From Deltaproteobacteria bacterium (GTDB taxonomy: Bacteria; Desulfobacterota; GWC2-55-46), in contig JABTVA010000011.1 of NCBI GenBank assembly GCA_015075075.1, positions 1 through 64,000 on the forward strand: DNA of 64,000 bases, in the 5' to 3' direction. Of the stretch, positions 10,836 to 15,219 are shown piece after piece. Numbering within the stretch: the stretch's first letter is position 1; every line of letters begins with the position of its first letter. The notes beneath the pieces are model-generated. The model had not been told where the DNA came from. It was given only the letters and a program-made list of their open reading frames with translations, and did no database searches. Position numbers and translations under genes: made by a program.

Positions 10836-11827
10836 TTACCCCACCCCTGGTTATTTTTTTTACTCCTGCCCCGGGCGCACCCCCCAAGGCATCTTATCGA
10901 GACAGCGGATTCACCCCTGATTTCCTTAAGTTCTTTCAAAGGCCATGTGCGTCCAGACGCCTGGCGTCGGCTAACAGCTTGCTAAATCCCCAACTTCATT
11001 CAGGCTGCTCAAAAAGCTCACGCGCCCGCGATACGCTGAGCCCGAAAATATGAACGAGGGCGCAATTTCCGCACCGGACGCCACCCTGAAGATCGATTCC
11101 AGCAGATCACTTCCTGCTCGTCATCAGTTAACATATTACTGCTGTCACCGCGTGTATCCCTATATTTACAGCCCGCCAATACCGGATAGAACATACACGG
11201 TGCCGGCGTTGATATCTACATATACAGGCTCGACCTGGTTTGACAGGATAGGTCCATGAACCGGGCATTACCTTGTCGTCTGAACGAACCGAGGTCTCCG
11301 ACCCCGAGGCAATAACCTCAGCTACCGCTTCTTGGACTCATAGTCAGATATGGAAACGCCAGGTCCACCGGACGATACCGGCGAGGGTAAGGTCGTCCGA
11401 TGAGGTCCGCACCTTTCAGGTGCGATCCGTCAGCTTATGATGTCCATGGAGATGGAGATGTCCGTCGATACCGTCGAGTCCAGGCGCTCCATACCGAGAG
11501 AGGTCTGTCGTCTCCCTTGACCCCTGCGGTTGACCGTCTACCGACCCCCGCAGATACATTATGCCGGATTAGTCTGACGGCGATTGGTCGAGACCGAGGA
11601 GGCCGTAAAGAGGTTCGGATCTTCGGGGCGGAAGCCCGTCTGACTCCACGGCATATATGCCCTGGCCGCCACGTCCTCATGATGAGGAGATCGGTTATCG
11701 TGCGAAGGACGGCCCTACGACGGCCATGATCTAAAACGCCGGATCCAGCCCGTTAGCGCGTTATTTTCCTACGTCAGCGTCCGAGGGCTCTATGCGTTTG
11801 CCGCTGTTTGTTCCCGAGAAGATTAAT
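10836..11827. other. 1-kb stretch without an intact gene
   Basis: No intact coding frame or recognisable RNA. Minus-strand frames contain short protein-like pieces such as VYVDINAGTVYVLSGIGGL (around 11166-11222) and a stretch near 11365-11420, separated by stops. This suggests a decayed or indel-scrambled gene. The plus-strand frame at 11400-11729 is Arg-rich and unconvincing. A short match to the second hairpin repeat (GGCTGCTCAAAAAGCTC) lies near 11002. Confidence 0.45.
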
Positions 11828-11952
11828 AGCAACCCTGTACCAGAGATTCCCCGCAATCAAGGTCAGAATGTGCTGGATATTGGCGTTAATACGTGAAGAT
11901 TTTATCCGGCCCGACAAAATATCCGGGAAAAGATCAATTTGTGTGGTTGCCT
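11828..11952 (+). repeat. Dispersed TIR element, degenerate full copy
   Basis: Left end AGCAACCCTGTACCAGAG and right end GAAAAGATCAATTTGTGTGG then TTGCCT match the termini of the better copies, with CCCCGCAATCAAGG and TTATCCGGCCCGACAAA inside. It ends four bases before the tRNA gene, the most diverged complete copy here. Confidence 0.65.
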
Positions 11953-11955
11953 TAA

Positions 11956-12031
11956 CCGGGCGTGGTCACCTGATAGAGCAATCGCGTTCGGGACGCGGGG
12001 GCCGGAGGTTCGAATCCTCTCGCCCCGACCA
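11956..12031 (+). tRNA. tRNA-Pro (CGG)
   Basis: The anticodon arm is TCGCG-TTCGGGA-CGCGG with anticodon CGG (11989-11991). The T arm is GGAGG-TTCGAAT-CCTCT. The 3' acceptor strand CGCCCCG is followed by discriminator A and an encoded CCA (12029-12031). The C1-G72 pair and A73 fit bacterial tRNA-Pro. There is one C-C mismatch at acceptor pair 2. The D stem reads G-TC against GAGC, which would pair perfectly (GCTC/GAGC) if one C were restored, so one base has probably been lost from the consensus. A strong terminator follows. Confidence 0.8.
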
Positions 12032-12072
12032 TCATCAAGGGACCAGCCGGAAACGGCTGGTCCTTTTTTTTG
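11987..12072. repeat. Left direct repeat of island (attL-like, tRNA 3' half)
   Basis: From the anticodon loop through CCA and the terminator, this stretch is repeated imperfectly at 14672-14751. The two copies bracket the AT-rich three-gene cassette, the usual signature of tRNA-targeted site-specific integration. The left copy keeps the tRNA functional. Confidence 0.75.
12040..12071 (+). terminator. Rho-independent terminator of tRNA-Pro
   Basis: GGACCAGCCG (12040-12049), loop GAAA, CGGCTGGTCC (12054-12063), followed by a run of eight T. Confidence 0.9.
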
Positions 12073-12111
12073 TGGTGGGCGGTGCCCCCTACTAAACTTT
12101 TTATAAAGAGT

Positions 12112-12141
12112 TTGAACCAACAATATATTGTATGTTATAAG
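12112..12141 (+). promoter_or_regulatory. Predicted promoter of MBL cassette with internal palindrome
   Basis: TTGAAC at 12112-12117 and TATAAG at 12136-12141 are spaced by 18 bp (17 bp if TTATAA is used). The perfect 12-bp palindrome ACAATATATTGT (12120-12131) lies in the spacer, a position where a bound repressor would block RNA polymerase. Transcription would start about 30 bp before the ribosome site. Confidence 0.5.
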
Positions 12142-12181
12142 ATTTCAACTACCTATATACAGTGGCCTTGAAGGAGGGACT

Positions 12182-12946
12182 ATGGTTTTGCACAACTTAG
12201 ATGTCGGTTGCGGAGACGCCAGCATAATAATAAGTGGCGCCTCGACCTTTCTAATTGATTGTCATAAAATTGAAGATCATCAGAATTTATTACCAAAACA
12301 TAAATTTTTGCGAGGTGTTTTCATAACGCACCAGCATAGAGACCATTTCTCTGGCCTACATTTTCTAAAGGACAATGACTATCGAATCGAAAACCTAATC
12401 TTTAGTCCTTATAAACGAAGGCATGCTGATAGCAGTGTAGAATATGATGAATGGATAGAATTCGAATCACTGAAAAAGCACTTCCAAAATAGAGGGACCA
12501 CCATTCACCAGCCCTATCGTCAGGAGAATCTAAGTCTCGCTTGGTGGCCAATTAATAATATTGAGTTCAGAGTGGTAGGACCTAATTCCAGAATTGCCAA
12601 TGAGGAAACAAGAGAATTACATGATGCATGCCTTGTTGTGCATGTCCGCATGGGAGGAAGAAAAATTCTTTTTACTGGTGACGCATCTGATAAAAGCCTT
12701 GAATTTATATCAAATAATACATCGAATTTTTGTGATGATATTTTGCATGCAAGCCATCATGGCAGCATAAATGGAGCGTTCGCACCCTTTATCAAAGCTT
12801 GCAATGCACAATATACAGTTATTTCGACAAAAGAAGGAGTTTATGAGAATGTTCCGCACCCTGATGCTTTAATTGAATACCAAAAGCATACTAGTCAAAA
12901 AGTATATCGGACTGATCGTGACGGCGCACTCAAATGGAGTTTTTAA
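12182..12946 (+). CDS. Stand-alone ComEC-type MBL-fold hydrolase
   Basis: 254 residues. MVLHNLDVGCGDASIIISG is the first strand pair of the ComEC/Rec2 metallo-beta-lactamase subfamily. THQHRDHFSG (H50, H52, D54, H55) is the HxHxDH metal site, KILFTGDASD supplies D167, and LHASHHGSINGAF (H192, H193) is the conserved SHHGS block. The C-terminus ends in YRTDRDGALKW as in ComEC. No signal peptide and no channel domain are present, so it acts alone, probably in the cytosol, perhaps on nucleic acid or nucleotides. AAGGAGGG at 12171-12178 sets the ATG at 12182; a TTG at 12128 would lack a site. AT-rich, unlike its surroundings. It abuts the next gene with no gap. Confidence 0.85.
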   Translation: MVLHNLDVGCGDASIIISGASTFLIDCHKIEDHQNLLPKHKFLRGVFITHQHRDHFSGLHFLKDNDYRIENLIFSPYKRRHADSSVEYDEWIEFESLKKHFQNRGTTIHQPYRQENLSLAWWPINNIEFRVVGPNSRIANEETRELHDACLVVHVRMGGRKILFTGDASDKSLEFISNNTSNFCDDILHASHHGSINGAFAPFIKACNAQYTVISTKEGVYENVPHPDALIEYQKHTSQKVYRTDRDGALKWSF

Positions 12947-13552
12947 ATGGAAATAAGTGAAAAGGAAAAAGAAGCGCTGAAATTTCTTAGCAGTGATTTT
13001 AATCAATGTTTCCAGCAAATGCGTCATTATGATTCTCAAATAACACTGATTTTGAAATTTATGTTTACAGCTTACACAGCATTAATAGGAATAGCATTAG
13101 GATTATACCAATTCGGCCTTAAGGAACAGAAAGATTTCTCAACACCTGCTTCTTTTGCGCTCACAATCGGATTGATCATTGGATTATTTATGTTTTCTTT
13201 AACCGTGCGCAATAGAGTCTACTTTGTCCAAGTTGCAAGATATATAAATGAACAACGAGGATTTTTTCTCAAATTCTCTCCAATAGGTTTCGGAAATTTT
13301 TCAAAAATGTATACCAATCTGCAACAACCACCTTATTTCAATTGGAGAAGCTCACACACTTGGCTATATGGGATTATAGCAACATTAAATTCGACACTGC
13401 TAATTGTGCTTTTATATATACTTGAATATGATTGGATAATTTTAGCATTTTGTTCAAGCCTTCTGGTTTTAATTCAGATGAGCTGTGGAATTTTATATTT
13501 GAGATCTAGAGAGAGCAAATCAGCTTCTAAGGCAGTTTTTGGAAGAGAATAA
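12947..13552 (+). CDS. Four-helix membrane protein of MBL cassette
   Basis: 201 residues of no family I can name. An N-terminal amphipathic/coiled region (SEKEKEALKFLSSDFNQCFQ, residues 4-23) precedes helix 1 (about 33-54), helix 2 (68-87), a roughly 50-residue loop with several Tyr/Phe, helix 3 (138-159) and helix 4 (162-184), then a basic tail. The two-hairpin layout with a long middle loop recalls SLATT-type membrane effectors of prokaryotic conflict systems, but no motif proves this. Its ATG follows the previous stop directly and its TAA touches the next ATG, so the three genes must be translated together. Confidence 0.75.
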   Translation: MEISEKEKEALKFLSSDFNQCFQQMRHYDSQITLILKFMFTAYTALIGIALGLYQFGLKEQKDFSTPASFALTIGLIIGLFMFSLTVRNRVYFVQVARYINEQRGFFLKFSPIGFGNFSKMYTNLQQPPYFNWRSSHTWLYGIIATLNSTLLIVLLYILEYDWIILAFCSSLLVLIQMSCGILYLRSRESKSASKAVFGRE

Positions 13553-14485
13553 ATGAGCGAGTTAAATTTTTTATTTCTTAATGTAGGACATGGTGATTGT
13601 TCATTTATCATATTTCCAAATGATGCTAGACTGATGATAGATTGCGGCGGCAATGATTGCTGGCCATCACTGCTATTAACACATTTAGGATTTACAAAGA
13701 AGCGAAATCCAATACCTGGCAATAGATATGCTTTGGATAAATTAATAATAAGCCATCCACATGGGGATCACATTACTGATTTAAAAAATATTTATGAAAA
13801 AATTGGTTTTCGTACGCTTTTAGGTGGTTGCAGTGAATTTATTGACAGACTTTCCGCAGATCAGGTAGATTTTAAAAAGCGAGGAAGGGATTCTGCAGAG
13901 TTTTTTTTCAGTTTATCTAAGGAAAAATATATTTATACTTACAATAAAACCCTTGATAGACTGACTCAAGGTGACGAATTCATAGTAAAAAGCACGAGAT
14001 TTATCCAATACGAAAACGGGATGGATCTAAACGAATTAAGTTATTTTGTCTCTCTAGAATATGGTGGGCATAAAATATTATTCACCGGAGACATAACATC
14101 AGCAGGTATCAATAAAATTCTAAAATCACCTAATGCACAGAAATTTGAAAAATTTGTTCGCGGAACCACTATTTTAAAAATTCCGCACCATGGCAGAGAG
14201 AACGGATGTTCTCTAGAATTATTCAGGAGTATCGGAAGAAAGCCTTTAATAGGTCTGGTATCTGATGAGGTTTTAAACGATAGAAATGAAGGCACTTCTA
14301 GCATAGGATGGTATTCAGACAAAATACAAGATCAAGCAGTAGAAATTAACGGTTCTTTTGAGAATAGAAAAGTATTAACTACTAGGTCCGATAAAAACAT
14401 TTTGATTAAAATTAAATCAGATGGAAAATTACAAATTTTTACAAATGTATTTAGTGAATTAGAACGCCAAAGAAGTAAAATGTAA
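13553..14485 (+). CDS. Second stand-alone MBL-fold hydrolase
   Basis: 310 residues. NFLFLNVGHGDCSFIIF opens a ComEC-like MBL fold. LIISHPHGDHITDL (H68, H70, D72, H73) is the metal site, GGHKILFTGDITS gives D180, and ILKIPHHGRENGCS (H212, H213) is the second histidine pair. It is only distantly similar to the first hydrolase and carries an extra region (residues 81-160, Lys-rich) between metal motifs and a longer C-terminus, so the pair is not a recent duplication. It begins immediately after the membrane-protein stop. Possible roles are a nuclease, phosphodiesterase or nucleotide hydrolase; the substrate is unknown. Low G+C and AT-ending codons mark transfer. Confidence 0.85.
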   Translation: MSELNFLFLNVGHGDCSFIIFPNDARLMIDCGGNDCWPSLLLTHLGFTKKRNPIPGNRYALDKLIISHPHGDHITDLKNIYEKIGFRTLLGGCSEFIDRLSADQVDFKKRGRDSAEFFFSLSKEKYIYTYNKTLDRLTQGDEFIVKSTRFIQYENGMDLNELSYFVSLEYGGHKILFTGDITSAGINKILKSPNAQKFEKFVRGTTILKIPHHGRENGCSLELFRSIGRKPLIGLVSDEVLNDRNEGTSSIGWYSDKIQDQAVEINGSFENRKVLTTRSDKNILIKIKSDGKLQIFTNVFSELERQRSKM

Positions 14486-14493
14486 AAGCGTGT

Positions 14494-14514
14494 CCCCGCG
14501 TATGCAACGCGGGG
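14494..14514 (+). terminator. Hairpin after MBL cassette
   Basis: CCCCGCG (14494-14500), loop TATGCAA, CGCGGGG (14508-14514), 8 bases after the last stop. There is no T-run, so termination is uncertain. Confidence 0.4.
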
Positions 14515-14671
14515 CGCGGCTATGCTAAAATTGTGCTAATTTCCTTCCAAACAGGCAAAAAATCACAAAACAGACAATTTCTTTAGAAGCTTTTAACCTC
14601 TTGATTGATAAGACAAAACTGGAAACTCAGCCACGCATCAAGGAGGGGTTATGTTTTAGTGTCTTTTGTCT

Positions 14672-14751
14672 TTCGGGACGCGGGGGCTGGAGGTTCGAAC
14701 TCTCCTCGCCCGATTCATCATCAAGGACCAGCCGGAAACGCTGTCCTTTTG
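14672..14751. repeat. Right direct repeat of island (attR-like)
   Basis: TTCGGGACGCGGGGGCTGG, AGGTTCGAAC and ACCAGCCGGAAACG correspond in order to the tRNA-Pro anticodon loop, T arm and terminator at 11987-12072, with several substitutions and indels. It does not encode a complete tRNA. Confidence 0.7.
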
Positions 14752-15219
14752 TTTATCAGCTTATGGCACAGCCCATCCTGATCACGCCCACCCCGAAAGA
14801 AAGCCGCAACCGAACTAGGCTCGCGTCATCGCCCTTTGGGCCGAAGTCCCTTCCGATGATGATAAAGACCGCAATTCTATGACTACCCGAAGGCCGCCCT
14901 TGGCACAAGGAGGACTATTGTCACGCCCAGTCCCCTGAGCCAGGATTGAAGGCCGTATCAGAGTCACGGCGTTAATGAGCAATACACCCAAAGATGCCTT
15001 TATCCGGCCCACCGCCCATAAATGCCAAAGCTGAATTCTGTCGCTCGCGCCTCCTGATTGGGAGAGCTGGAAGGCGAAGAGTTCACCCTCCTTTTCATCC
15101 TCCCGCCTGATTAAAGCTGGGAGGGAGGTTCGAATTGCGGCGCGCCCTTAACGCGGCCCGGCCCTCCGGTTTTTCTACATTTTCTCATCTGAGCCGCTAC
15201 CGGGTGCCCGATCCTATCT
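14752..15219. other. Stretch to the right of the island without a gene
   Basis: G+C returns to the chromosomal level. I see no intact frame, terminator or RNA in either strand. Short open frames on both strands lack ribosome sites and family features. Confidence 0.4.

What the first reader, a model, noticed from the sequence alone, without database searches (positions are those of the whole stretch)
12032..14671. Unnamed three-gene cassette: MBL hydrolase, four-helix membrane protein, second MBL hydrolase
Seen: three intact AT-rich ORFs joined with zero-base gaps, two divergent ComEC-type metallo-beta-lactamase hydrolases with complete metal motifs flanking a novel four-TM protein. They are the only indel-free genes in an error-rich neighbourhood, are integrated at a tRNA, and have a dedicated promoter. 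Known: stand-alone ComEC-like MBLs occur as effectors in prokaryotic conflict systems, and SLATT-like membrane proteins accompany nucleotide-signalling systems. Inferred: this may be a compact defence or toxin module in which one MBL processes a nucleic acid or nucleotide and the membrane protein is a pore or sensor. I know of no described system with this architecture.
Basis: partly seen in the sequence, partly recalled or inferred. Interest (0 to 1): 0.85.

Follow-up and report, generated by a model that had tools for sequence, protein, structure and literature searches.

The report
Membrane-tethered twin DNase defence cassette
A three-gene cassette sits inside a tRNA gene of one bacterial genome, and its membrane-protein gene recurs across many phyla beside genes for DNA-cutter-like enzymes; it is predicted to be an antiviral system in which the membrane protein likely holds and controls the enzymes, which would be a new design for bacterial immunity.

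Summary
The three intact genes are real: MBL1 12182-12946, a four-TM protein 12947-13552 and MBL2 13553-14485, with zero-base gaps and 35% GC in a 59% GC window. They lie in a 2685-bp insertion in tRNA-Pro(CGG). A congener (G283) has the empty site with one intact tRNA. Another (G197) carries at the same tRNA a ~25-kb island with an integrase, type I R-M, IetAS and short-pAgo/TIR genes. Both MBLs belong to the ComEC nuclease group with complete metal motifs; the MBL2 model best matches the ComEC DNase domain 9ic4. The TM family has no Pfam, NCBIfam, PADLOC or PHROGs match above a cut-off, yet a genome scan found it in 24 loci across many phyla. In 20 of 24 it lies beside one or two ComEC-like MBLs of at least five exchangeable subfamilies; 10 of 24 loci also carry R-M, DNA-methyltransferase or DISARM genes. 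This supports a modular defence unit: constant membrane protein, swappable MBL. The exact MBL1-TM-MBL2 combination was not seen elsewhere in my lists. Defence, nuclease activity and gating by the TM protein are inferred. The "dedicated promoter" is not above chance; decay is confined to genes near the site.

The parts
11956..12028 (+). degenerate tRNA-Pro(CGG), the insertion target
   Evidence: Infernal 29.1 bits, lowest of 38 tRNA matches; aligned to intact copies in five kin genomes
11987..12075 (+). left direct repeat (att-like): tRNA anticodon loop to 3' end plus terminator
   Evidence: 83-86% direct repeat with 14672-14754, spacing 2685; first 16 bases identical in both copies
12037..12066 (+). 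tRNA terminator hairpin (13 pairs plus T run)
12182..12946 (+). MBL1, 254 aa, ComEC-type metallo-beta-lactamase-fold hydrolase, HQHRDH/TGDA/SHHG
12947..13552 (+). TM, 201 aa four-helix membrane protein with conserved, predicted cytosolic face
   Evidence: no family match above a cut-off
13553..14485 (+). MBL2, 310 aa, ComEC-type metallo-beta-lactamase-fold hydrolase, HPHGDH/TGDI/PHHG
14672..14754 (+). right direct repeat (att-like), diverged tRNA 3' half plus terminator

Best explanation
The cassette is a three-gene unit inserted in a tRNA gene, likely an anti-phage or anti-plasmid system in which the four-helix membrane protein is predicted to anchor and restrain two ComEC-type MBL enzymes that would cut DNA at the inner membrane when an invader is sensed. 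Shown: the genes, the insertion at tRNA-Pro(CGG) that a congener lacks, the ComEC-type sequence and metal motifs of the MBLs (and the predicted fold of MBL2), the recurrent TM-MBL adjacency, repeated exchange of the MBL partner, and the defence-gene neighbourhoods. Inferred: that the MBLs are DNases, that they are cytosolic and dock on the conserved cytosolic face of the TM protein, that the TM protein is the sensor or gate because it is the constant part, and that two MBLs give heteromeric or complementary cutting.
For: Across 24 genome loci in many phyla the TM gene has a ComEC-like MBL beside it in 20: 19 by called ORFs (26 MBL ORFs, 25 within two genes of TM) plus L020 by its reading frame. 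19 of the 26 gaps are -22 to +12 nt. Six loci (L004, L007, L009, L010, L016, L023) have two MBLs of different subfamilies. TM and MBL2 distances correlate over 16 same-contig-length pairs (r 0.47; 30 of 10000 permutations as high). Partner type changes at least 11 times on the TM tree. MBL2 model: pLDDT 88.9; best PDB match the ComEC nuclease domain 9ic4, E 1e-13. That domain is a Mn-dependent DNase (PMC12455585, passages), and ComEC-like MBLs act as proteolytically activated nucleases in HamMAB, AVAST and Canu, shown to cut DNA for HamM (PMC12799240, passages). 19 of 24 invariant TM residues lie in the N-terminal helix and loop 2; the side holding these and the C-terminus has 14 K/R, the other side 2. 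R-M, DNA-methyltransferase or DISARM genes in 10 of 24 loci. The same tRNA in G197 holds an integrase, type I R-M, IetAS and pAgo/TIR genes. On three plasmids another multi-TM protein plus a ComEC-like MBL stand beside a JAB/E1-type gene; two of these operons reach NCBIfam's 6A-MBL anti-phage cut-off.
Against: No activity data. 4 of 24 TM loci show no MBL: L018 and L019 (intact TM, shared housekeeping-like context), L021 (TM gene interrupted), L024 (contig end). 14 of 24 loci showed no R-M/DISARM gene among the four ORFs printed on either side, and no background rate was measured. The TM model has no significant PDB match. TM was not found in viral contigs, plasmids or phages; MBL1 not in viral contigs, with only distant matches (all under 60%, those listed at most 32%) in 77 plasmid and 20 phage records, many annotated as competence proteins; MBL2 likewise in 42 plasmid records. 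MBL folds hydrolyse many substrates; MBL2 also resembles phosphorylcholine esterases.
Confidence: 0.5

Rival explanations
1. Membrane-killing defence: the TM protein oligomerises into a pore that depolarises the infected cell, and the MBLs are the regulators, removing or making the signal that keeps it shut.
For: Four-helix TM proteins are common pore effectors (recalled); the conserved polar cytosolic face could bind a ligand; TM is the constant part of the module.
Against: No nucleotide cyclase or other signal-making gene is in the cassette; both MBLs are ComEC-nuclease-like by sequence and MBL2 by fold; defence MBLs of this group studied in PMC12799240 (passages) are nucleases.
Confidence: 0.2
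2. Defence system whose MBLs hydrolyse another phosphoester, such as a phage-induced nucleotide, a lipid head group or a modified base, rather than DNA.
For: MBL2 also matches the phosphorylcholine esterase Pce/CbpE, E 1.7e-5 to 1.3e-4 by profile and 5.5e-10 by fold; the fold search also lists a cAMP-bound MBL (7e3w).
Against: A ComEC domain is the best solved match for both MBLs by sequence and for MBL2 by fold.
Confidence: 0.13
3. Not defence: a DNA-uptake or DNA-processing helper at the membrane related to natural transformation.
For: MBLs are nearest to ComEC; the genome has its own ComEC elsewhere.
Against: The cassette is sporadic (TM in 2 of 395 genomes of the phylum sample, the window's own being one of the two; none of three congeners), inserted at a tRNA, and in kin loci beside R-M genes; I noticed no competence genes among the printed neighbours.
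Confidence: 0.07
4. Passive cargo or a toxin-antitoxin-like stabiliser of the tRNA island without antiviral role.
For: Inserted at a tRNA with an att-like repeat; 2685 bp, no integrase of its own.
Against: Intact in a spot where the nearest neighbours decay; conserved partners and swap pattern across phyla.
Confidence: 0.1

Closest known systems
ComEC/Rec2 beta-lactamase-like nuclease domain (e.g. 9ic4, Moorella glycerini)
   Same: Both MBL families match it by profile; MBL2 model matches it by fold (E 1e-13); metal motifs complete.
   Different: Separate proteins of 254 and 310 aa without hydrophobic segments; no competence channel or OB domain attached; the genome keeps its own ComEC.
Gated nuclease-protease pairs (HamM/HamA, Avs1a, LmuA, Canu; PMC12799240, passages read)
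   Same: ComEC-like MBL next to a partner that likely controls it, in defence loci; weak profile matches to LmuA, Avs1a and RTasMBL.
   Different: Partner is a membrane protein, not a trypsin or caspase; no protease in the cassette.
6A-MBL anti-phage system (NCBIfam NF058523/NF058524)
   Same: Two plasmid operons over the 6A-MBL cut-off (L029, L031) also carry a multi-TM protein plus a second, ComEC-like MBL.
   Different: No JAB/E1 (cap2_3) gene in the cassette; its MBLs score 20.9 and 25.4 bits against a cut-off of 220; the multi-TM protein of L031 is unrelated by profile (probability 0.5%; that of L029 not compared).
PADLOC PDC-M48
   Same: MBL2 matches PDC-M48B over its length, E 1.2e-21; of ten kin-locus proteins scanned, the six MBLs all match PDC-M48B models, up to 330 bits.
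   Different: No cassette protein matches a PDC-M48A model. PDLC04672 (PDC-M48A, 125 positions) rang in 0 of 15 kin genomes or plasmids, but also in no control, so that absence is weak.
'MBL fold' and '4 TM domain' genes among CoCoNuT-associated defence superoperons (PMC11090510; passages and section 11 part 1 read, which holds the legend of its Figure 8)
   Same: An MBL-fold gene and a four-TM gene are in the legend's list of abbreviations for such operons.
   Different: Only legend labels were seen; sequences not compared, and in what I read no such system is named or tested.

Membership tests
ComEC-type MBL nuclease group | MBL fold with HxHxDH plus further metal ligands | tested here: met
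   Motifs in both MBLs, their key residues invariant in the family alignments; profile match of both and fold match of MBL2 to 9ic4 (the fold was predicted for MBL2 only)
ComEC-type MBL nuclease group | metal-dependent DNase activity | not testable with these tools
   needs biochemistry
ComEC competence protein | competence channel fused to the MBL domain | tested here: not met
   254- and 310-aa proteins without hydrophobic segments
Gated nuclease-protease pairs | adjacent trypsin- or caspase-family protease | tested here: not met
   No protease family among the three genes
Gated nuclease-protease pairs | two disordered insertions over the active site | tested here: inconclusive
   MBL1 (254 aa) is shorter than the 266-aa ComEC domain; the MBL2 model has low-confidence blocks at residues 211-220 and 241-250, not compared in 3D
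6A-MBL | cap2_3 (JAB/E1) protein and 6A-MBL enzyme above cut-off | tested here: not met
   No cap2_3 match; 20.9 and 25.4 bits against 220
PADLOC PDC-M48 | PDC-M48B (MBL) | tested here: met
   MBL2 E 1.2e-21 over most of the profile, MBL1 E 7e-8; the library gives no cut-off
PADLOC PDC-M48 | PDC-M48A partner | tested here: not met
   No cassette protein matches it at E<=1
SLATT membrane effectors | match to a SLATT profile | tested here: inconclusive
   None among the 25 of 39 Pfam families shown for 31 TM members
Anti-phage defence system | protection against phage or plasmid | not testable with these tools
   needs bench work

The most novel reading that the evidence does not exclude
A previously unnamed class of immune system, spread over bacteria and at least one archaeon, that works like a ComEC run in reverse: one conserved four-helix membrane sensor holds interchangeable ComEC-type DNases, often two different ones, at the inner membrane and releases them on DNA as it enters, so that the membrane itself is the restriction checkpoint.
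Probability: 0.3. Interest if true: 0.82.

Novelty: new variant of a known kind. Interest (0 to 1): 0.6.

Why it matters
In the papers I read, ComEC-like MBL nucleases in defence are protease-activated proenzymes or parts of larger systems. A small unit in which an uncharacterised membrane-protein family pairs with exchangeable ComEC-like MBLs would add a membrane-coupled way of controlling them, and may explain some orphan "ComEC/Rec2 family competence protein" annotations. It is compact (2.3 kb coding) and directly testable in a laboratory host.

Tried and rejected
Rejected: (1) filing it as PDC-M48, 6A-MBL or a nuclease-protease pair; a defining partner is missing. (2) A dedicated promoter; 9 sites against 8.7 expected. 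(3) "Only indel-free genes in an error-rich region"; genes further out align in one frame. (4) MBL1-TM-MBL2 as the conserved unit: among the listed top hits only the window's contig length is shared by all three, and one other length is shared by MBL1 and MBL2.

Led nowhere: fold searches of the TM model (no Foldseek match at E<=0.001; VIA-align rows are mostly generic helical bundles); viral contigs for TM and MBL1 (none); plasmids and phages for TM (none); searches with two distant TM proteins in plasmids found only the Methylocystis record; MBL1 at E<=1e-30 in two phylum samples (0 of 395 and 0 of 392), neither with a known positive, so these say little. Text searches for PDC-M48 and 6A-MBL (no paper) and for related wordings (listings seen) showed no description of this unit; (octameric membrane protein) was uninformative. 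Of PMC13092281 I saw passages only; it has no MBL or ComEC term in its main text.

Limits: homolog tables list 120 of 215, 681 and 240 hits; alignments A1-A3 use 31, 25 and 25 of these. In one search I used 83 of the 120 listed MBL2 rows (rows from P0324 on left out), and contigs are matched by equal length of at least 3000. The genome scan works by exact peptide patterns and is a lower bound. The greedy ORF caller may mis-start or miss genes (it missed the L020 MBL). Only four ORFs on each side of TM were printed and read. R-M genes were chosen by eye, then eight kin-locus proteins were checked with Pfam (the other two of its ten were from the G197 island) and two of L017 with PADLOC (the other eight were from the G197 island); L013 and L014 (identical TM) count by likeness to L010. 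No background rate for R-M neighbours was measured. Left out of the MBL clustering: the truncated L011 MBL, the smaller half of the split L007 MBL and the L020 MBL. Labels for the tree were mine: 36 labelled rows, with the window, L018 and L019 not counted; L020, L021 and L024 left out; quick method, 16 of 35 inner branches open.
Full report
What is there. Gene 1 (MBL1) runs 12182-12946, gene 2 (TM) 12947-13552, gene 3 (MBL2) 13553-14485, all on +, each stop followed directly by the next ATG. A GGAGG lies just before ATG 12182. The three genes have 0.386, 0.332 and 0.328 GC (0.348 together) against 0.587 for the rest of the window.

How it got there. A direct repeat bounds the cassette: 11987-12075 and 14672-14754 (83-86%, spacing 2685; first 16 bases identical). 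It starts at the anticodon loop of a tRNA-Pro(CGG) and runs past the tRNA terminator. In congener G283, window 11909-12070 and window 14672-15016 map onto one overlapping stretch (L057 2766-3232) with one intact tRNA-Pro(cgg) and no cassette. All five kin loci fetched with this tRNA hold one intact copy (L057, L058, L060, L061, L062). In the window the copy is degenerate (29.1 bits, lowest of 38). Congener G197 has about 25 kb at the same tRNA, with a phage-type integrase next to it (PF00589), type I methyltransferase and specificity genes, IetA/IetS, a pAgo-associated TIR protein and a short pAgo (449 and 696 bits). So the site is an integration spot that can receive defence genes. The cassette itself has no integrase. 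The genes nearest the site are decayed or frame-changed in the window, those further out are not.

What the proteins are. Both MBLs belong to the ComEC nuclease group: TIGR00361 at 5e-15 and 6e-9, though far below its full-length cut-off (54.6 and 34.7 bits against 190); ComEC chains are the best solved relatives of both families. Metal motifs are complete and their key residues invariant in the alignments. The MBL2 model (pLDDT 88.9, pTM 0.90) best matches the ComEC beta-lactamase-like domain 9ic4 (E 1e-13, TM-score 0.73 by target). PMC12455585 (passages) reports that domain as a Mn-dependent endo- and 5' exonuclease. The TM protein has a confident model (pLDDT 90.8, pTM 0.84): a long N-terminal helix running into TM1, a long TM2 helix, a loop of about 25 residues, then TM3 and TM4. 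19 of its 24 invariant residues are in the N-terminal part (9) and loop 2 (10), predicted cytosolic because that side, with the C-terminus, holds 14 K/R against 2 on the other. No family match reaches a curated cut-off: the best are Bax1-I (17.7 bits against 34.1) and TIGR00916 (15.4 against 148.6), with nothing in PADLOC or PHROGs. No solved fold stands out.

Where it recurs. Database search found 215 TM, 681 MBL1 and 240 MBL2 relatives at E<=0.001, among them a TM and an MBL2 both named Methanosarcina barkeri on one contig length. A pattern scan of the 84,980-species genome collection with the TM family found 24 loci, their titles naming among others Kuenenia, Aminicenantes, Nitrospirae, Clostridia, Latescibacteria, Elusimicrobia, Peribacteraceae, Dadabacteria, Gammaproteobacteria and Chloroflexi. 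A distant member (profile probability 96%) whose MBL gene overlaps it by 4 nt sits on a Methylocystis plasmid beside an annotated restriction endonuclease. In the window's own phylum sample 2 of 395 genomes have TM, the window's genome being one of them, and none of three congeners.

What goes together. 26 MBL ORFs were called in the 24 loci; 25 lie within two genes of TM, and the 26th is the other half of an MBL that looks split by a transposase in L007. With L020 counted from its reading frame, 20 of 24 loci have an adjacent MBL. The exceptions are L018, L019, L021 and L024. Six loci have two MBLs of different subfamilies. At 35% identity and 60% coverage the flanking MBLs fall into several clusters: MBL1-like, MBL2-like, a ~365-aa type, a ~285-aa PDC-M48B type, and singletons that include a 273-aa type. 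The partner type changes at least 11 times on the TM tree (quick tree, several open forks). In the six of 24 TM-bearing genomes with a close MBL1 (E<1e-70), that match lies beside TM; one of them (L016's genome) also has an MBL1 fragment on another contig. All 24 were chosen by TM, so this is not an unbiased test.

Defence context. R-M or DNA-methyltransferase genes confirmed by Pfam lie in L005, L006, L007, L008, L009, L010 and L022; L013/L014 carry relatives of the L010 genes; L017 has DrmD (1046 bits): 10 of 24. The other 14 showed none among the four ORFs read on each side, some on short contigs. On three plasmids a multi-TM protein of another family and a ComEC-like MBL stand beside a JAB/E1-type gene; two of the three operons pass a 6A-MBL cut-off, and the third was not scanned. 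Those second MBLs lack the HxHxDH motif. MBL1 and MBL2 have only distant relatives on plasmids and phages.

Reading. The constant partner is the membrane protein; the MBLs are exchanged. In modular immune systems this pattern suits a constant sensor or anchor with swappable effectors (my inference). I therefore read TM as anchor and gate and the MBLs as DNases acting at the membrane. PMC12799240 (passages) shows that ComEC-like MBLs serve as nuclease effectors and need a control device; there a protease, here by inference the membrane protein. Pairs of unlike MBL proteins working together, such as RNase J1/J2 or CPSF73/CPSF100, are recalled, not tested. The main rival is a pore-forming TM controlled by the MBLs.

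Novelty. No description of this unit was found in the library (searches; listings seen). PMC11090510 lists an MBL-fold gene and a four-TM gene in the abbreviations of its Figure 8 legend on CoCoNuT-associated operons, so such genes have been drawn in print; in the parts I read they are not named as a system. I rate it a new variant of a known kind: ComEC-like MBL defence with a new membrane partner.

Noticed in passing
MITE-like, unexplained.
   Followed up: partly
window ~10971-11020 and ~11886-11955: Shorter dispersed repeats; the second, just left of the tRNA, coincides with copies of the 150-nt repeat elsewhere.
   Followed up: no
L058 6725-17874 and L059 1-11724 (G197 island): Defence island at the same tRNA-Pro in a congener: integrase, type I R-M genes, IetAS, TIR/short pAgo, and (weak PADLOC matches) a PLD-type protein plus helicase.
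   Followed up: partly
L018 9980-10567 and L019 9974-10564: TM-family proteins without an MBL nearby, in a shared context with a gene that by eye is UppP-like: possibly an MBL-independent role.
   Followed up: no
L022 2803-3852: The TM-family ORF as called carries an N-terminal extension that by eye resembles a HAD phosphatase, a possible fusion.
   Followed up: no
L028, L029, L031: Plasmid JAB/E1-type operons (two over the 6A-MBL cut-off) carry an extra multi-TM protein and a ComEC-like MBL whose HxHxDH motif is altered.
   Followed up: partly
L007 8253-9948: An upstream MBL gene that looks split by a transposase insertion beside the TM gene (by eye).
   Followed up: no
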